This document shows, piece after piece, positions 1 to 6,019 of a DNA stretch of 6,096 nt. Within the stretch, counting starts at the first letter, position 1, and every line of letters begins with the position of its first letter. The DNA is from Rhodoferax sp. (GTDB lineage: Bacteria; Pseudomonadota; Gammaproteobacteria; Burkholderiales; Burkholderiaceae): assembly GCA_028292075.1 (NCBI GenBank), contig JAQGNA010000357.1:1-6096 (forward strand), given 5' to 3'. The translations under genes and the position numbers were made by a program. Below the pieces are notes generated by a model, which made no database searches, was not told the origin of the DNA, and saw nothing but the letters and a program-made list of their open reading frames with translations.

Positions 1-261
1 ATGCTCCTTTTTACATGAAAGATCGATTCCACCAGCTCCGGGACGGCAGCGTAGTAGTCTCCTCGCTGTTAATGAAATTCCGATTAGCACCCCATTTTCT
101 CTTATAGCTAATTCACTATAATGTGAACAGCTTGGGTCAAAAACACACCTATTCCCAATGTTTTTTGGACGCAATTTTCGATAAATTCGTAACAATAATA
201 TAGCGAATTTTGCAAAATTTGGCTTTTTTGGAATTGGTAGCGAATGAATTTGCGTATCCAT
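1..261 (-). CDS. YidD-family membrane protein insertion factor (partial, runs off left edge); candidate integron gene cassette
   Basis: Reading leftward from the ATG at 261-259, 87 codons are open to the edge of the window with no stop. The protein carries the YidD (DUF37) signature: a hydrophobic, basic N-terminal stretch (residues 16-30, AILLLRIYRKL), then CVFDPSCSHY (39-48), a conserved Gly-Val-x-x-Gly (57-61) and RRLLRCRPGAGG followed by ID (67-80). Cys39, Cys45 and Cys72 match the invariant cysteines of the family. E. coli YidD is 85 residues, so little should be missing beyond the usual C-terminal tail. Known YidD is a peripheral inner-membrane protein that aids YidC/Sec-dependent membrane insertion, and normally sits between rnpA and yidC. 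This copy is solitary, far more AT-rich than the genes to its right, and begins about 24 bases after a candidate attI core, all as expected of a cassette. The upstream Shine-Dalgarno is weak (GGGAA). The family call is firm; the cassette status and exact start are inferred. Confidence 0.8.
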   Translation of the reverse strand, partial: MDTQIHSLPIPKKPNFAKFAILLLRIYRKLRPKNIGNRCVFDPSCSHYSELAIRENGVLIGISLTARRLLRCRPGAGGIDLSCKKEH

Positions 262-284
262 TCTGGTGGTTCCCGTAAGCTTAC

Positions 285-291
285 GCTCAAC
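285..291 (-). other. attI: Candidate attI recombination core site (GTTGAGC)
   Basis: The minus-strand heptamer GTTGAGC fits the integron core consensus GTTRRRY. It lies about 100 bases upstream of where integron-integrase homology starts and about 24 bases before the ATG of the leftward yidD-like frame. That is the layout of an integron: intI, attI, then a first cassette read away from intI. The heptamer occurs by chance about once per kilobase per strand, so position, not sequence, is the main support. A 12-base palindrome (274-285) overlaps its downstream end. No accessory integrase-binding repeats could be confirmed. Confidence 0.35.
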
Positions 292-313
292 AGAAGGGCG
301 CAATTCTTCACTT

Positions 314-341
314 ACATTAAATTCAAAGCTATCCATTTCAA
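314..341 (-). promoter_or_regulatory. Possible leftward cassette promoter (Pc-like), weak
   Basis: On the minus strand TTGAAA (341-336) is followed after 16 bases by TAATGT (319-314); an alternative -10, TTTAAT (321-316), fits TATAAT better but has only 14 bases of spacing. It would read through the candidate attI core into the yidD-like frame, as a cassette promoter does. The region is AT-rich, so such matches are cheap. Confidence 0.2.
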
Positions 342-367
342 GTTCCCATGCCGGCATAACGTAATGT

Positions 368-959
368 ATGTCGCAAAACTGCCAAATAAGCTGGAGCTTG
401 CGGAATATTTGCATGCACTATATCCTGAGCGCGGAGAAGGCATACCTTCAGGGGGTGCGTTTTCTTGTCCGATGGCATGGCGGTGCCGGGGCCATGAGGC
501 ATCCAAGGGAAATGGGCGCCTCCGAGGTAGAAGCCTTTCTGACCATGTTGGCCAACGAGCGCCGCGTGTCTGCGTCCACGCACAACCAAGCGCTAAGTTC
601 CCTGCTCTTTCTCTACCGGCAAGTCCTTGCGATGAACTTGCCATGGCTGGACGGTGTGACCCGCCCCGCGCAGAAGCGCAGCATCCCCAGCGTGTTGACA
701 AAGGACGAGGTGGCGGCCGTGTTCAGTTCCTCGCGCCAGACATGCGCTTGCTGGCGCGCCTCCTACCTCCTGTATGGCACTGGCATGCGGCTGATGGAGG
801 GCTGAGACTTCGCGTCAAGGACTTCGATTTCGATCGCCATGTCGTCATCGTGCGGGAAGCCAAGGGAGACAAGGACCGCATGGTCATGTTGCCGCACCCA
901 CTGGCAACCGCACTACCTGCCTGACTCAGTTGCGCGTGTGGTTTGACAAATCACGTTAG
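368..959 (+). pseudogene. intI: Integron-type tyrosine recombinase relic (frameshifted, C-terminally truncated)
   Basis: Homology to integron integrases is clear but spread over three frames. Frame 2 carries the N-terminal DNA-binding domain from about 390 to 730: HYILSAEKAYL, RHPREMGASEVEAFL, SASTHNQALSSLLFLYR and LPWLDGV. Frame 1 carries DMRLLARLL (739-765). Frame 2 returns for LLYGTGMRLMEG (767-802), which holds the first catalytic Arg. Frame 1 follows with GLRLRVKDFDFDR and VREAKGDKDRMVMLP (to about 920), including the conserved Lys of the beta-2/3 hairpin. A possible last piece, LTQLRVWFDKSR, is in frame 3 (921-956). Lesions: about one base lost near 731, a 7-base tandem duplication at 759-772, one base lost near 800, and a further shift near 918. 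The integron-specific insert, the HxLRHxxAT box and the Tyr nucleophile are absent, so no active recombinase can be made. IntI normally integrates cassettes at attI. XerC/D is a less likely identity because LPWLDGV and RHPREMG are integron-integrase-like. Confidence 0.82.
759..772 (+). repeat. 7-base tandem duplication inside the integrase relic
   Basis: CCTCCTA (759-765) is followed directly by CCTCCTG (766-772). Removing one copy would join RLLARLL to LLYGTGM in a single frame, as intact integron integrases have it, so the duplication is read as one of the inactivating lesions. It partly offsets the single-base loss upstream near 731. Confidence 0.6.
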
Positions 960-1052: not shown

Positions 1053-2285
1053 TCAGAACAACACGCGCGTCCGCAGCGTCCCCGGCACATGCCCCAGCTT
1101 CTCCAGCGCCAGATCGCTCGACGCCGCGTCGATGTCGATCACCACATACCCAATCGCCTCGTTGGTCTGCAAAAACTGCCCGGCGATGTTGATCTTGTTG
1201 TCCGAGAACACCTGGTTGATGGCCGACAGCACGCCCGGGATGTTGCGGTGCACGTGCAGCAGGCGGTGTTTGCCGGCGTGCGTGGGCAGCGCCACCTCGG
1301 GGAAGTTGACCGACGAGGTGGAGGTACCGTTGTCGCTGTACTTCACCAGCTTTTCGGCCACTTCCACGCCGATGTTGGCCTGCGCCTCCATGGTGGAGCC
1401 GCCGATGTGCGGCGTGAGGATGACGTTGTCCAGCCCCCGCAGCGGCGACACGAATTCGTCCTTGTTGCTGCCCGGCTCGACCGGGAACACGTCGAGCGCG
1501 GCGCCCAGCAGCTTCTTCGCCTTGAGCGCCTCGGTGAGCGCGTCGATGTCGACCACGGTGCCGCGCGAGGCATTGATCAGGATGCCGCCCGGCTTCATGG
1601 CGGCGATCTCGGCGGGGCCGATCATCCACTGGGTGGACGGCAGTTCGGGCACGTGCAGCGTGACGATGTCGGCCTGCGCCATCAGGTCGTGCAGCTTGCC
1701 GACCTGGCGCGCGTTGCCCAGCGGCAGCTTGCTCACCACGTCGTAGAACGCCACTTTCATGCCCAGCGCCTCGGCCAGCACCGACAGCTGCGTGCCGATG
1801 GAGCCGTAGCCGACGATGCCGAGCGTCTTGCCGCGGATCTCGTAGGCGTTGGTGGCCGACTTGAGCCAGCCGCCGCGGTGCGCCAGCGCGCTCTTTTCGG
1901 GCACGCCGCGCAGCAGCAGGATGGCCTCGGCCAGCACCAGCTCGGCCACGGAACGGGTGTTGGAATACGGCGCGTTGAACACGGCCACGCCGCGCTCTCT
2001 CGCCGCGTTCAGATCGACCTGGTTGGTGCCGATGCAGAAGCAGCCCACCGCCACCAGCTTGGGTGCGTGCGCGAAGATATCGGCGGTGAGCTGGGTTTGC
2101 GACCGGATGCCGATGAAGTGAGCGTCGGCGATCCTGGCCTTCAGCTCCTCACCCTGCAGCGCCTTCGGCAGCATCTCGATCTGGCTGTAACCCTGGGCGC
2201 GCAAAAGGTCGACCGCGGAGGGATGAATGCCCTCGAGCAACAGGAACTTGATCTTGCTTTTGTCGAGGGAGGTCTTGCTGGTCAT
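1053..2285 (-). CDS. serA: D-3-phosphoglycerate dehydrogenase
   Basis: SerA oxidises 3-phosphoglycerate to 3-phosphohydroxypyruvate with NAD+, the first step of serine synthesis, in the cytoplasm. The protein is 410 residues, the same as E. coli SerA. The substrate-binding lobe flanks a Rossmann domain with GYGSIG (159-164); the catalytic triad is visible as Arg241 (NASRGT), Glu270 (FPVEP) and His293 (TPHIGGST). A C-terminal ACT domain (about 338-410) keeps His346, Asn348 and Asn366, matching the residues that bind serine in the E. coli enzyme, so feedback inhibition by serine is expected. The ATG at 2285 is chosen because it gives the family length and has AAGG (2295-2292) just upstream; an in-frame extension to 2468 would add 61 unrelated residues across the divergent promoter region. 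It is transcribed alone, divergently from ugpB across a 274-base gap. Confidence 0.97.
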   Translation of the reverse strand: MTSKTSLDKSKIKFLLLEGIHPSAVDLLRAQGYSQIEMLPKALQGEELKARIADAHFIGIRSQTQLTADIFAHAPKLVAVGCFCIGTNQVDLNAARERGVAVFNAPYSNTRSVAELVLAEAILLLRGVPEKSALAHRGGWLKSATNAYEIRGKTLGIVGYGSIGTQLSVLAEALGMKVAFYDVVSKLPLGNARQVGKLHDLMAQADIVTLHVPELPSTQWMIGPAEIAAMKPGGILINASRGTVVDIDALTEALKAKKLLGAALDVFPVEPGSNKDEFVSPLRGLDNVILTPHIGGSTMEAQANIGVEVAEKLVKYSDNGTSTSSVNFPEVALPTHAGKHRLLHVHRNIPGVLSAINQVFSDNKINIAGQFLQTNEAIGYVVIDIDAASSDLALEKLGHVPGTLRTRVLF

Positions 2286-2313
2286 GGTGCCTTGCGCATT
2301 GGAGAATGAATGG

Positions 2314-2332
2314 GGGGAGGCCCGGCCTCCCC
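2314..2332 (-). promoter_or_regulatory. GC-rich hairpin in the probable serA leader
   Basis: GGGGAGGC (2314-2321), a 3-base spacer and GCCTCCCC (2325-2332) form a perfect 8-bp stem, 28 bases upstream of the serA start codon. No T-run follows on either strand, so it is not a standard terminator. It could be a 5'-leader structure affecting serA translation or mRNA stability; the structure is seen, the role is inferred. Confidence 0.35.
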
Positions 2333-2343
2333 GAACGGAAGGC

Positions 2344-2355
2344 GATGCTAGCATC
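2344..2355. promoter_or_regulatory. 12-base perfect palindrome upstream of serA
   Basis: GATGCTAGCATC is a perfect palindrome 58 bases upstream of the serA ATG, in the divergent serA/ugpB region. Its minus-strand half contains TAGCAT, a 4/6 match to a -10 box, but no convincing -35 lies 16-18 bases upstream. It could be an operator; nothing else supports this. Confidence 0.2.
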
Positions 2356-2490
2356 CGGGTCCGCGCGGGCCGCAGGCCAGGACCGCGTGCCAGCGTCGGC
2401 ACAAGGGCCATCCAGGGCGTCGCGGGCAAGACGAGGAAGCCCGCTGCGAACGGGTTTTCCCGGGTCACGGTTTGTCAGATTCGGAATAAA

Positions 2491-2524
2491 AATTCGTGAG
2501 TCTGTCACATTTAGAAAATAAGAT
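2491..2524 (+). promoter_or_regulatory. ugp promoter with Pho-box-like half-site
   Basis: CTGTCAC (2502-2508) equals the conserved half of a PhoB box. After exactly 10 bases comes TAAGAT (2519-2524), a 4/6 match to -10. In known PhoB-activated promoters such as E. coli phoA the box replaces the -35 element and ends about 10 bases before -10, as here. The expected partner repeat 11 bases upstream (2491-2497, AATTCGT) is poor, so the box is degenerate or single. ugp operons are classic Pho-regulon members. The predicted start of transcription is near 2531, giving a leader of about 30 bases to the ugpB ATG. Confidence 0.5.
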
Positions 2525-2559
2525 TCAGCGCTCACACCAGAGCATGTCCAGGAGACTTC

Positions 2560-3873
2560 ATGAAATTCCGCTTTCCAGCCGTTACCGCGGCTGTCTTCGC
2601 CCTCACAGCTTCCGTCGCCGGCACCGCACACGCGCAGACCGAGATCCAGTGGTGGCACTCCATGACCTCGGTCAATGGCGAATGGGTCAACGACCTCGCC
2701 AAGGAATTCAACGCCAGCCAGACGGCCTACAAGATCGTGCCGACCTACAAGGGCCAGTACGATGAATCGATGGCGGCCGCCATTGCCGCCTACCGCTCGG
2801 GCAACGCACCGCACATCCTGCAGGTGTTCGAAGTCGGCACGGCCACCATGATGGCCAGCAAGGGCGCGGTGATTCCGGTCACCAAGATCATGCAGGACGG
2901 CGGCCAGGCCTTCGACCCCAAGGCCTACATCCCGGCGATCGCAAGCTACTACACCAACCCCGCCGGCCAGATGGTGAGCTTCCCGTTCAACAGCTCGACC
3001 ACCGTCTTCTATTACAACAAGGACGCCTTCAAGGCGGCGGGCCTGCCCGACAAGCCGCCTACCACCTGGCCCGAGGTCACCCTGGCCGCAGCCAGACTGA
3101 AGGCCGCCGGACACAAGTGCCCGCTGACGCTCGCCTGGCAGACCTGGACGCAGCTTGAAAGCTTTTCCTCGTGGCACAACGTCGAGTACGCCACCAAATC
3201 GAACGGCATGGCCGGCATGGACGCACGGCTGAAGGTCGACTCCCCGCTGCACCTGCGCCACATCGAGAACCTGTCCAACATGGCCAAGCAGGGCCTGTTC
3301 GTCTACAAGGGCCGCCAGAACATTCCTGAAGCCAGCTTCGTCTCGGGCGAGTGCGCCATGATCACGAGCTCGTCGGGCTTCTACGGCAACGTGTCCAAGA
3401 ACGCCAAGTTCGCCTACGGCGTGGCGCCTCTGCCCTACTACCAGGACGTGCCCGGCGCGCCACAGAACACCGTCATCGGCGGCGCGAGCCTGTGGGTGAT
3501 GTCGGGCAAAAAGGCCGACGAATACAAGGGCGTGGCCCAGTTCTTCTCGTACATCTCCAAGCCCGAAGTGCAGTCTGCCAGCCACAAGCGCACCGGCTAC
3601 CTGCCCGCCACCATGGCGGCCTTCGACCTGACCGAGAAGTCCGGCTATTACAAGCAGAACCCGGGTACCGACGTGGCCGTGAACCAGATGATCCGCAAGG
3701 TCACCGACAACAGCAAGGGCCTGCGCCTGGGCAACCTGCCGCAGATCCGCGCCGTGGAAGACGAAGAGCTGGAGCAGGTCTGGGCCGGCAAGAAGGCGCC
3801 CAAGGAAGCGCTGGACTCCATCGTGAAGCGCGGCAATGAACTGCTCGAACGCTTCCAGAAGGCCAACAAGTAA
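2560..3873 (+). CDS. ugpB: sn-glycerol-3-phosphate ABC transporter, periplasmic binding protein
   Basis: UgpB captures sn-glycerol-3-phosphate or glycerophosphodiesters in the periplasm and delivers them to UgpAE. The 437-residue product matches the E. coli length (438). A Sec signal peptide (MKFR, hydrophobic 7-21, cleavage predicted after AHA at residue 25) precedes a family-1 solute-binding fold. Stretches shared with E. coli UgpB include QVFEVGTATMMASK (88-101), PFNSST (142-147), IGGASLWVM (306-314), TGYLP (345-349) and GLRLGNLPQIR (387-397). The ligand-contacting positions as I recall them for E. coli (Tyr, Glu, Ser, Trp, Gly, Tyr, Arg) all have counterparts: Tyr67, Glu91, Ser146, Trp193, the Ser270-272 cluster, the Gly308-309 pair, Tyr347 and an Arg at 389 or 397. 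Start: ATG 2560 with AGGAGA at 2550-2555. It is the first gene of the operon and is followed by a terminator-like hairpin, which suits a binding protein needed in excess. Confidence 0.97.
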   Translation: MKFRFPAVTAAVFALTASVAGTAHAQTEIQWWHSMTSVNGEWVNDLAKEFNASQTAYKIVPTYKGQYDESMAAAIAAYRSGNAPHILQVFEVGTATMMASKGAVIPVTKIMQDGGQAFDPKAYIPAIASYYTNPAGQMVSFPFNSSTTVFYYNKDAFKAAGLPDKPPTTWPEVTLAAARLKAAGHKCPLTLAWQTWTQLESFSSWHNVEYATKSNGMAGMDARLKVDSPLHLRHIENLSNMAKQGLFVYKGRQNIPEASFVSGECAMITSSSGFYGNVSKNAKFAYGVAPLPYYQDVPGAPQNTVIGGASLWVMSGKKADEYKGVAQFFSYISKPEVQSASHKRTGYLPATMAAFDLTEKSGYYKQNPGTDVAVNQMIRKVTDNSKGLRLGNLPQIRAVEDEELEQVWAGKKAPKEALDSIVKRGNELLERFQKANK

Positions 3874-3890
3874 GGCCTCGACCACAACGG

Positions 3891-3926
3891 GAGCCAGGGC
3901 CTGACAAGGCCTGGCGCTCTCTTTTT
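3891..3926 (+). terminator. Intercistronic terminator/attenuator between ugpB and ugpA
   Basis: GCCAGGGCCT (3893-3902), loop GACA and AGGCCTGGC (3907-3915) pair as a 9-bp GC-rich stem with one bulged G; the outer GAG/CTC (3891-3893, 3917-3919) can extend it. TCTCTTTTT (3918-3926) follows. It lies 17 bases after the ugpB stop and 49 bases before the ugpA ATG. Because ugpA, ugpE and ugpC follow in the same direction with no clear new promoter, it probably acts as a partial terminator or as a 3' stabiliser of ugpB mRNA. Confidence 0.75.
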
Positions 3927-3975
3927 GTCCAGCCCTCCGCATTGCGCGCCGAGGGCTTCAGATTTTTGGAGCTCC

Positions 3976-4857
3976 ATGGAAAAGCGTGTCCTGTTTCGTT
4001 CCGCCTGGCTGCCCTGGGCGCTGCTTGCACCCCAGCTGATCGTGATCGCGGTGTTTTTCTTCTGGCCAGCCGGCCAGGCGCTGCTGCAGTCTTTCCAGGT
4101 GCAGGACGCGTTCGGCAGTTCCACCGAATGGGTCGGCTTCGAAAACTTCAAGACGCTGTTCGCCGACCCGGGCTACCTGGCGTCTTTCAAGACGACGGCG
4201 GTGTTCTCGGTGCTGGTGGCCGGCATCGGCATTGCGCTGTCGCTGATGCTGGCGGTGTTCGCCGATCGGGTCATCAAGGGCGCGCTGTTCTACAAGACGC
4301 TGCTGATCGTGCCCTATGCCGTGGCGCCCGCGGTGGCCGGCGTGTTGTTCGTCTTCATGTTCTCGCCGTCGCTCGGCGTGGTGGCCTACGGGCTGGGCAA
4401 GATGGGTTTCGACTGGAACCACCTGCTCAACGGCGGGCACGCCATGACGCTGATCGTGGTCGCGGCGGTCTGGAAGCAGATTTCGTATAACTTCCTGTTC
4501 TTCCTGGCTGGCCTGCAGTCGATCCCGAAGTCGTTGATCGAAGCCGCCGCCATCGACGGCGCCCGGCCGCTGCGCCGCTTCTGGACGATTCAGTTCCCGC
4601 TGCTGTCGCCCACCACCTTCTTCCTGCTGGTGATCAACGTGGTCTACGCCTTCTTTGACACCTTCGCCATCGTCGACGCGGCCACCCATGGCGGCCCGGG
4701 GCAGGAAACCTCGATCCTGGTCTACAAGGTGTACTACGACGGCTTCAAGGCGATGGACCTCGGCGGGTCCGCCGCACAGTCGGTGGTGCTGATGGTGATC
4801 GTCATCGCGCTCACGGTGGTCCAGTTCAAGTTTGTCGAAAAGAAAGTGAATTACTGA
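3976..4857 (+). CDS. ugpA: sn-glycerol-3-phosphate ABC transporter permease UgpA
   Basis: UgpA is one of two inner-membrane permease subunits that form the channel with UgpE and dock on the UgpC ATPase dimer. The 293-residue product (E. coli: 295) has six predicted membrane segments near residues 11-31, 72-95, 106-128, 158-178, 211-231 and 266-288. The cytoplasmic EAA loop reads IEAAAIDGA (188-196), the coupling-helix motif of binding-protein-dependent permeases. Highly UgpA-like stretches are [12 protein letters not shown] (113-124), [11 protein letters not shown] (166-176) and VYAFFDTF (223-230). The ATG at 3976 is preceded by GGAG (3968-3971) and gives the family N-terminus (FRSAWLPW). An in-frame TTG at 3925 would start inside the upstream terminator hairpin's T-run and is rejected. 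The stop overlaps another ATG (sequence ATGA, 4857-4860) that opens a short frame through the spacer to ugpE. Confidence 0.96.
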
Positions 4858-5019
4858 TGAACTGGCACACCCCCAGTCTCGGCGCACTGCGCGTCGCTCC
4901 GCCGCCTCCCGGTTTCGACGGGCTCAACACTGACGCGCTCGGGGCAATGCCTGCCGTCTGGCCAAGCCGGCCCTGCACCATGGCTTGCTCGCCGATCGCG
5001 TCGTCAGAGAAAGTGCCCC
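4858..5019 (+). repeat. 162-base structured ugpA-ugpE spacer, probably a repeat-derived insertion
   Basis: In E. coli ugpA and ugpE are almost contiguous; here 162 GC-rich bases separate them. Small hairpins are visible: CCCG (4908-4911) with CGGG (4919-4922) closing a TTCG-containing loop, and GGCC (4960-4963) with GGCC (4969-4972). The first part (4865-4910, starting ACACCCCCAGTC) resembles intergenic repeat sequences I recall from Comamonadaceae; this is memory, not a search. One frame is open throughout: an ATG at 4857 overlapping the ugpA stop runs 56 codons to TGA at 5025-5027, eight bases inside ugpE. The peptide is Pro/Ala-rich, looks like no known family, and is not called a gene. 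Confidence 0.5.
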
Positions 5020-5877
5020 ATGGTTGAACGGCGCAGTACCTTCGGAATTCTGGCCCACGTGGTGATGATCGTGGGCGTGCTGGTGGTGGCCTTCCCGCTC
5101 TACCTGGCATTCATCGCATCCACGCACACGGCGCAGGACATCGTTCAGGCGCCGATGCCGCTCTGGCCTGGCAGCAACATGTGGGAAAGCTACAAGACCG
5201 CGCTGTTCGGCGGCGGCGCCGGCGCTGGTGGCGGCTCCGACGCCCCCGTGGCCCGCATGATGTGGGTGAGCCTGGTGACGGCGCTGGTCATCACCATCGG
5301 CAAGATTTCGATCTCGCTGCTGTCGGCCTTCGCCATTGTCTACTTCCGCTTTCCGATGAAGGGGTTTTTCTTCTGGGCCATCTTCGTCACGTTGATGCTG
5401 CCGGTCGAGGTGCGCATCGGCCCAACGTACAAGGTGGTGTCCGACCTGCACATGCTCAACAGCTTCGCCGGGCTCACCATTCCGCTGATCGCCTCGGCCA
5501 CCGCCACCTTCCTGTTCCGCCAGTTCTTTCTCACGGTGCCTGACGAACTGGTGGAGGCCGCCCGGATGGACGGCGCCGGCCCGATGCGCTTCTTCAAGGA
5601 CATCCTGCTGCCGCTTTCCAAGACTTCGATGGCCGCGCTGTTCGTCATCCAGTTCATCTACGGCTGGAACCAGTACCTCTGGCCACTGCTGGCCACGACC
5701 AGCGAAGACATGTACCCGGTGGTGATCGGCATCAAGCGCATGATTTCCGGCGGCGATGGCCAGACCGGCTGGAACGTGGTCATGGCCACCGCCCTGCTGG
5801 CGATGCTGCCGCCCGCACTGGTGGTGATCCTGATGCAGAAGTGGTTTGTCAAAGGCCTGGTCGATACCGAGAAATAG
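5020..5877 (+). CDS. ugpE: sn-glycerol-3-phosphate ABC transporter permease UgpE
   Basis: UgpE is the second inner-membrane permease of the glycerol-3-phosphate importer. The 285-residue product (E. coli: 281) has six predicted membrane segments near 12-34, 81-106, 113-135, 148-168, 201-221 and 255-276. The EAA loop is VEAARMDGAGPMRFF (178-192). Strongly UgpE-like stretches are TLMLPVEVRIGPT (124-136), ASATATFLFRQFF (158-170), FIYGWNQYLWPLL (212-224) and the C-terminal FVKGLVDTEK. The periplasmic loop after the first helix carries a glycine-rich run, GGGAGAGGG (64-72), that E. coli UgpE lacks. Start ATG 5020 has only a purine-rich AGAGAAAG (5006-5013) as ribosome-binding site, so re-initiation from the short frame that ends inside this gene may help. 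It belongs to the ugpBAEC operon. Confidence 0.96.
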   Translation: MVERRSTFGILAHVVMIVGVLVVAFPLYLAFIASTHTAQDIVQAPMPLWPGSNMWESYKTALFGGGAGAGGGSDAPVARMMWVSLVTALVITIGKISISLLSAFAIVYFRFPMKGFFFWAIFVTLMLPVEVRIGPTYKVVSDLHMLNSFAGLTIPLIASATATFLFRQFFLTVPDELVEAARMDGAGPMRFFKDILLPLSKTSMAALFVIQFIYGWNQYLWPLLATTSEDMYPVVIGIKRMISGGDGQTGWNVVMATALLAMLPPALVVILMQKWFVKGLVDTEK

Positions 5878-5890
5878 ACGCACCTCGGCT

Positions 5891-5969
5891 GCCGTCCACT
5901 TCGCGTGGCGGCGCCCGCCCCTTGCAGGGGGCGACACCAGCGGCCTGGCAAAGTCATGTTCCGCGGTGT
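5891..5969. repeat. Three-hairpin intergenic repeat element between ugpE and ugpC
   Basis: Three consecutive inverted repeats fill most of the 142-base gap. First: GCCGTCCAC (5891-5899) with GTGGCGGC (5905-5912), one bulged T, closing a TTCGC loop. Second: CGCCCC (5916-5921) with GGGGCG (5928-5933), a perfect 6-bp stem. Third: ACACCAGCGG (5934-5943) with CCGCGGTGT (5961-5969), one bulge. No T-run follows, so none is a terminator. The block CGCCCCTTGCAGGGGGCGAC plus the following ACACCAGCGG, and the distal CCGCGGTGTTCC, resemble a repeat I recall as common between genes in Variovorax and relatives; genome-wide copy number would settle it. Bases 5878-5890 and 5970-6019 hold nothing else beyond the ugpC ribosome-binding site. 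Confidence 0.6.
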
Positions 5970-6019
5970 TCCCCGAATGAAGAACAATGCCTCGTCGTGG
6001 GGCAGTTACAGAGAAGAAC

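What the first reader, a model, noticed from the sequence alone, without database searches (positions are those of the whole stretch)
1..959. Relic chromosomal integron with a yidD-like first cassette
A leftward AT-rich frame with an unmistakable YidD signature (CVFDPSCSHY, RRLLRCRPGAGG) sits head-to-head with a dead integron-type integrase, with a GTTRRRY core (285-291) between them in the right orientation. YidD is normally a housekeeping gene of the rnpA-yidC cluster; a solitary, compositionally foreign copy in cassette position suggests that membrane-insertion factors travel as integron cassettes. The YidD homology and integrase homology are read directly; the cassette interpretation is inference.
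Basis: partly seen in the sequence, partly recalled or inferred. Interest (0 to 1): 0.7.

Follow-up and report, generated by a model that had tools for sequence, protein, structure and literature searches.

The report
YidD paralog as integron gene cassette
A decayed bacterial gene-capture element (integron) in this stretch holds, as its first captured gene, a distinct relative of the membrane-protein-insertion factor YidD, which elsewhere is paired with a tiny unstudied protein and also sits in integrons of other bacteria.

Summary
The core of the finding holds, with corrections. Window 1-336 (-) encodes a YidD-family protein; about 408-950 (+) is a dead integron integrase. The real site is GTTATGC at 354-360 (-), inside an attI that matches intact Burkholderiales integrons (15 of 15 bases to a Diaphorobacter plasmid integron). 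Roughly 130-160 bp between attI and intI is missing.

The gene is not a stray housekeeping yidD. It belongs to a separate family ("yidD2", my label) with an N-terminal extension. In 12 of 12 genomic relatives a ~62-aa DUF4177-like gene follows at once. Cassette boundaries were found in 4 of those 12 (one only a half site at a contig end). One relative's attC is 89% identical over 129 bp to the attC behind blaIMP-4. 10 of the 12 host genomes hold at least one further YidD-family gene.

What the module does is unproven; best guess: an optional membrane-bound insertion or quality-control accessory. The window's own attC and partner gene lie beyond its left edge, and no genome was held for it.

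The parts
1..336 (-). yidD2 coding sequence, 112 codons visible, running off the window's left edge; starts ATG at 336
   Evidence: PF01809, TIGR00278, alignment A1, start codon checked; dN 0.107 / dS 0.605 (NG86) against L001
1..359 (-). visible part of the gene cassette; begins at T359, just after the G of the core site. Its attC and the expected DUF4177-like partner lie beyond base 1
   Evidence: homology to L001 runs through the core site GTTATGC; L003 and L010 units also begin at GTTATGC
354..360 (-). attI core site GTTATGC; inferred crossover between G360 and T359
354..403 (+). attI region (core plus integrase-proximal side) conserved with intact Burkholderiales integrons
   Evidence: aligned 354-403 with L040 and L074, 0 of 1000 shuffles each
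404..412 (.). approximate deletion junction: attI joined to about codon 24 of intI; core to 'HY' codon is 56 bp here against 182-218 bp in nine of the intact loci
408..950 (+). intI pseudogene: start and first ~24 codons absent, a 4-residue insertion near 480-492, frame change near 800, C-terminal catalytic half absent
   Evidence: TIGR02249 in two frames; tblastn against L024-L029 and L040, L041
285..291 (-).
1053..2285 (-). serA (phosphoglycerate dehydrogenase); chromosomal context, not part of the integron
   Evidence: PRK11790 E 1.1e-201; 83-84% DNA identity in L122-L125
2560..5877 (+). ugpB, ugpA, ugpE (glycerol-3-phosphate uptake); context only

Best explanation
SHOWN: bases 1 to about 950 are the attI end of a degenerate Burkholderiales-type integron. 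IntI-type recombination placed a cassette at the attI core (G360|T359); later decay removed the stretch between attI and intI, the start of intI and its catalytic half. SHOWN in relatives, INFERRED for the window beyond base 1: the cassette carries two genes, yidD2 and a ~62-aa DUF4177-like gene, closed by an attC. INFERRED function: the YidD core (helix 47-62 of the L001 model plus the Cys/Pro-Ser-Cys-Ser-His-Tyr motif) binds the inner face of the membrane as E. coli YidD is thought to do near Sec/YidC, the conserved N-terminal extension and the translationally close small partner form a complex with it, and the cassette supplies an optional insertion or quality-control factor beside the host's own YidD. 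I give the cassette identity about 0.95 and the function about 0.35; the score is for the whole.
For: attI: 15/15 bases to L040, 0 of 1000 shuffles for L040, L074 and L080, 1 of 1000 for L079; AACGTAATGTA occurs twice in 1,389,178 bases (both strands) of held loci, both times at an attI. Boundaries in relatives: L001 starts G|TTATGC and ends in an attC 89.2% identical over 129 bp to the one just behind blaIMP-4; L003 is preceded by an attC, 7830-7891, E 0.0017, and L010 is followed by one, 1644-1707, E 0.0019; L008 has a half attC at its contig end right after the partner's stop (E 1.2). The attC model, trained on none of these, gave no hit in 5 control loci. Partner gene in 12 of 12, spaced -16 to +28 nt, overlapping in 5 of 12. 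Separate clade from housekeeping YidD. Purifying selection: dN/dS about 0.18 against L001. 10 of 12 host genomes have at least one further PF01809 gene.
Against: The window shows only the attI side; its attC, partner gene and the rest of the genome are not visible. 8 of 12 relatives show no cassette boundary by my tests, so the module also lives outside integrons. The attC model missed L001's attC and any attC behind L003's partner. attI is recognisable in only 12 of 32 intI loci examined, and L085, L089 and L095 align no better than 23, 53 and 29 of 1000 shuffles. Nothing tests the function: no PDB match at E <= 0.001 for either model, and the yidD2 model is of middling confidence (mean pLDDT 73.6).
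Confidence: 0.8

Rival explanations
1. yidD2 is simply a chromosomal neighbour of an integrase relic; the juxtaposition is accidental and no cassette was ever inserted.
For: 8 of 12 relatives carry the module without recognisable cassette boundaries; the integrase is dead; the cassette's far end is not visible.
Against: The gene starts exactly at a conserved attI core, the same boundary hexamer TTATGC opens the L001, L003 and L010 units, and L001 ends in an attC related to that of a clinical cassette.
Confidence: 0.04
2. yidD2 plus the DUF4177-like protein is a two-component toxin-antitoxin-like or anti-phage module acting at the membrane; integron arrays commonly hold such pairs (recalled).
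For: Two small, closely spaced genes with patchy distribution; neighbours include Thoeris ThsA/ThsB in L009, a TIR protein in L005, and HipA and PIN/Phd in L001.
Against: No PADLOC match for yidD2 of L001 or the partners of L001 and L003. 5 of 24 neighbours scanned against PADLOC matched (cut-offs 0.01 and 0.0001) and there is no control rate, so enrichment is not shown. YidD signature residues are kept, whereas a toxin need not keep them.
Confidence: 0.2
3. The cassette carries a redundant or regulatory copy of YidD's job with no separate role for the partner, the two being carried together by chance of common origin.
For: PF01809 is met well above the cut-off (62.1 against 27 bits).
Against: The partner is next to yidD2 in 12 of 12 loci across Beta-, Gamma-, Alpha- and Zetaproteobacteria and Bacteroidota and is itself strongly conserved, with third-position changes dominating in 10 of 10 pairs compared.
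Confidence: 0.15

Closest known systems
Housekeeping YidD (PF01809 / TIGR00278), E. coli YidD
   Same: Core domain with CVF-x-PSCSHY and RRLxRC motifs; Pfam and NCBIfam cut-offs passed
   Different: N-terminal extension (ExLRPSxERKLTGTTKxD), separate clade, partner gene, not beside rnpA/yidC in the loci read; in the cassette loci, mobile
Integron gene cassettes (class 1 and sedentary chromosomal integrons)
   Same: attI core junction, TTATGC start, R''/R' core pair, attC hairpin; L001's attC is close to that behind blaIMP-4
   Different: Two-gene content, and the same module also occurs outside recognisable integrons
Diaphorobacter sp. HDW4A plasmid integron (L040, NZ_CP049911)
   Same: attI 15/15 at the core; integrase 55% identical over the window's 416-865 stretch, the best of 32 intI loci compared
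   Different: Intact integrase and other cassettes; no yidD2 in the fetched 8.5 kb (annotation)
DUF4177 (PF13783)
   Same: Size, and UniRef names some homologues 'DUF4177 domain-containing protein'
   Different: Pfam cut-off not met: L010 16.3 bits against 25, L001 and L003 no match

Membership tests
YidD family (PF01809 / TIGR00278) | profile match above curated cut-off | tested here: met
   62.1 against 27 bits; 59.1 against 40
YidD family (PF01809 / TIGR00278) | place in the rnpA-yidD-yidC cluster (housekeeping YidD) | tested here: not met
   window neighbours are intI relic, serA and ugp; L013 and L016 show the housekeeping arrangement
YidD family (PF01809 / TIGR00278) | assists membrane protein insertion | not testable with these tools
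   needs experiment; E. coli YidD role taken from passages citing Yu et al. 2011, the paper itself not read
Integron | intI-type tyrosine recombinase gene | tested here: met
   TIGR02249 in two frames, but broken and far below the cut-off of 265 bits: homology met, function lost
Integron | attI beside intI in the right orientation | tested here: met
Integron | Pc promoter | tested here: inconclusive
   no sigma-70-like site in 1-1100; the stretch between attI and intI is largely missing
Integron gene cassette | attI or attC junction at the 5' end | tested here: met
   window 354-360; L001, L003, L010 likewise
Integron gene cassette | attC at the 3' end | tested here: inconclusive
   outside the window; seen in L001 and L010, half in L008
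DUF4177 (PF13783) for the partner | profile match above curated cut-off | tested here: not met
   3 proteins tested, best 16.3 against 25 bits

The most novel reading that the evidence does not exclude
yidD2 and its DUF4177-like partner form an undescribed two-protein membrane module (an insertion-modifying, stress or defence device) that integrons and other routes hand between phyla, and whose cassettes share attC stock with clinical resistance cassettes.
Probability: 0.35. Interest if true: 0.75.

Novelty: new variant of a known kind. Interest (0 to 1): 0.55.

Why it matters
YidD is treated as a housekeeping helper of the YidC/Sec insertion site. A paralog that keeps the YidD core, has gained an extension and a fixed small partner, and moves as a cassette would be a handle on what YidD does at all, and would add membrane biogenesis to the functions that integrons carry. 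The blaIMP-related attC in an environmental Burkholderiales MAG also shows that such cassettes and clinical resistance cassettes draw on related recombination sites. The papers found here do not describe it: 'YidD' with 'gene cassette', 'YidD' with 'integron' and 'membrane protein insertion efficiency' with 'integron' gave 1, 2 and 0 papers; passages of one (PMC9952398) are unrelated and the other two were seen as listings only. Only open-licence PubMed Central papers were searched.

Tried and rejected
Rejected: 285-291 as core site (inside conserved codons). Rejected: yidD as the genome's displaced housekeeping gene (separate clade; the five closest serA relatives each have one weaker YidD-family match and no yidD2; whether those matches lie beside rnpA was not read). 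Not supported: a defence-island reading (5 of 24 neighbours matched PADLOC, no control). Not supported: phage carriage (single-sequence and two alignment scans of viral contigs found 0 relatives; phage records gave 4 weak partial matches). Plasmids: 10 weak partial matches for yidD, none for the partner.

Led nowhere or went against me: a first strict attC scan found nothing in L001-L003 (L010's site was found); the attC model missed L001; window 336-440 found no plasmid match; Rfam found no attC-like family (1 unrelated hit in L009); fold searches gave no PDB match at E <= 0.001; no PDB relative of yidD2 (best E 0.26); no promoter-like site in 1-1100; yidD2 was absent from 398 other Burkholderiales (none above 65.6 bits) and 368 other genomes of G002's class, and the partner from 384 others of G005's class, so further genome examples were not gained. 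Tree caveat: the split of 57 yidD2 and 29 housekeeping rows has support 57/81 and appears in 58% of bootstrap trees, one housekeeping row (L043) being a very long branch; 28 of 29 housekeeping rows group with 97/90.

Rows dropped: of 41 attC candidates I chose 28 by eye (one of them trimmed), and used 22 of those in the model (six left out because their inner arms did not fit the fixed layout).

Full report
What is in the window. Bases 1053-5877 are ordinary chromosomal genes: serA on the minus strand and ugpB, ugpA, ugpE on the plus strand. serA is 83-84% identical in DNA to four unnamed Burkholderiales genomes, and ugpB follows it in 3 of the 12 relatives' loci fetched; none of these 12 loci holds intI or yidD2 in the ~1.5 kb beside serA. 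The left ~950 bases are therefore an addition beside serA. No whole genome is held for the window.

The YidD frame. The leftward frame passes the Pfam and NCBIfam cut-offs for YidD. The start is thus most likely ATG at 336. Between the window and L001, a Burkholderiales MAG contig, 37 of 58 differences fall on third codon positions and dN/dS is about 0.18, so the protein has been under selection. GC is 39% here against 66% in serA.

The true attI. L001 and the window stay alike through ACGTTATGC just before the gene. The Diaphorobacter sp. HDW4A plasmid integron (L040) has, 213 bp before the matching codon of its intact integrase, GCATAACGTAATGTA, identical to window 354-368. Among 32 intI loci examined, 12 have a site with at most four mismatches (L040 none, L080 one); 20 have none, four of those with fewer than 450 bp of upstream sequence. 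Alignment of window 354-413 with the attI of seven of them, the core kept and the rest shuffled, is reached by 0 of 1000 shuffles for L040, L074 and L080, by 1 for L079, and by 23, 29 and 53 for L085, L095 and L089. The 11-mer AACGTAATGTA occurs twice in 1,389,178 bases of held loci (both strands), both times at an attI. The gene therefore begins at a real attI core in the right orientation. In the window the core lies 56 bp from the 'HY' codon of intI, against 182-218 bp in nine of the 12 (the others 275, 286 and 354), so roughly 130-160 bp is missing, including the integrase start. The integrase also has a frame change near 800 and ends near 950 without its catalytic half.

The cassette in relatives. 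One scan of 84,980 species genomes returned 23 loci. L001-L012 are yidD2; L013-L023 score as housekeeping YidD, and in L013 and L016 the rnpA-yidD-yidC order was read directly. In 12 of 12 yidD2 loci a ~62-aa gene with the signature MQYKIExIGAEFSxKAI...GYKFHSVFQVQxPGCLGIG...TYLAVYVKE follows, from 16 nt overlap to 28 nt gap, overlapping in 5 of 12. I call it DUF4177-like from UniRef names; Pfam's own DUF4177 cut-off is not met in the three tested.

Cassette boundaries. L001: the unit starts G|TTATGC, and GCATAAC...GTTAAAT follows the partner's stop. That stretch is 89.2% identical over 129 bp to sequence in plasmid records; in the one record opened it lies directly behind blaIMP-4 in a class 1 integron. 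1370 plasmid records matched the L001 query; the 20 listed all match in this stretch, the others were not looked at. For an independent test I built an attC model from 22 attC sites of Burkholderiales arrays next to intI. It hits L003:7830-7891 just before yidD2 (E 0.0017) and L010:1644-1707 just after the partner (E 0.0019), both in cassette orientation, and a half site at the contig end of L008 right after the partner (E 1.2). It gives no hit in control loci L013, L014, L016, L018 and L020. It misses L001, whose attC is of another type, and finds nothing behind L003's partner. E-values of this model are rough. L002, L004-L007, L009, L011 and L012 show no boundary by these tests; L009 has only a half-site-like stretch before yidD2, not counted. 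So 5 of 13 known loci (window, L001, L003, L008, L010) are cassettes, and the module also lives elsewhere.

A separate family that moves. 10 of the 12 yidD2 genomes have at least one more PF01809 gene; the two with one only, G003 and G006, may be incomplete. In the tree the 57 yidD2 and 29 housekeeping rows need one change of label, with modest support for that branch (57/81); 28 of the 29 housekeeping rows group with 97/90. yidD2 of one Ghiorsea (L004) groups with Halomonas (L009) at 99/97 and not with the other Ghiorsea (L007), which fits horizontal movement. The family is rare in reference genomes: apart from the seed genomes, 0 of 398, 0 of 368 and 0 of 384 genomes in three group scans, against 171 and 753 matches for the two proteins in the large protein collection. 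Of the 120 listed matches for each protein, 22 share a longest-contig length, an indirect sign of co-occurrence limited by the capped lists.

How it may work. Predicted partner: strand-helix-strand-strand, mean pLDDT 85.1. Predicted yidD2 (L001): helices 20-28, 32-39, 47-62, 76-88, 90-104, mean pLDDT 73.6. Neither has a PDB match at E <= 0.001. E. coli yidD lies in the rpmH-rnpA-yidD-yidC-trmE cluster (passage in PMC10502375), and YidD was found by cross-linking in in-vitro transport assays in the Sec network (passage in PMC8082313); both cite Yu et al. 2011, which I did not read. With the YidD core conserved, a membrane-bound accessory at the insertion site is the simplest guess, the extension and the partner being what is new. 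This step is inference. Toxin-antitoxin and defence readings remain open: neighbours include Thoeris genes (L009), a TIR protein (L005), HipA and PIN/Phd (L001), but 19 of 24 neighbours scanned did not match PADLOC and no control was run.

Verdict. The new matter is the yidD2 plus small-partner module and its spread. Cassette identity about 0.95; function about 0.35.

Noticed in passing
L009:2869-4842: Thoeris defence genes thsA and thsB lie upstream of yidD2, with a short lipoprotein-like frame between.
   Followed up: partly
L001:2923-3051: An environmental Burkholderiales MAG attC is 89% identical over 129 bp to the attC behind blaIMP-4 in a class 1 integron.
   Followed up: partly
L001:435-1742 and L001:3190-3878: HipA and PIN/Phd toxin-antitoxin-type genes flank the cassette on both sides.
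   Followed up: no
L004:741-1121 and L009:5494-5823: yidD2 of a Ghiorsea MAG groups with that of a Halomonas MAG, away from the other Ghiorsea.
   Followed up: partly
window 4858-5019 and 5878-6019: The ugp operon has unusually long intergenic spacers (162 and 142 nt) between ugpA, ugpE and the start of ugpC.
   Followed up: no
133 of 399 Burkholderiales genomes: An integron integrase (E <= 1e-80) occurs in a third of the sampled order; the attI motif RYYYAACGTRATGTA is shared by several.
   Followed up: partly
L009:2271-2377: Rfam TwoAYGGAY RNA match, 47.2 against 43 bits.
   Followed up: no
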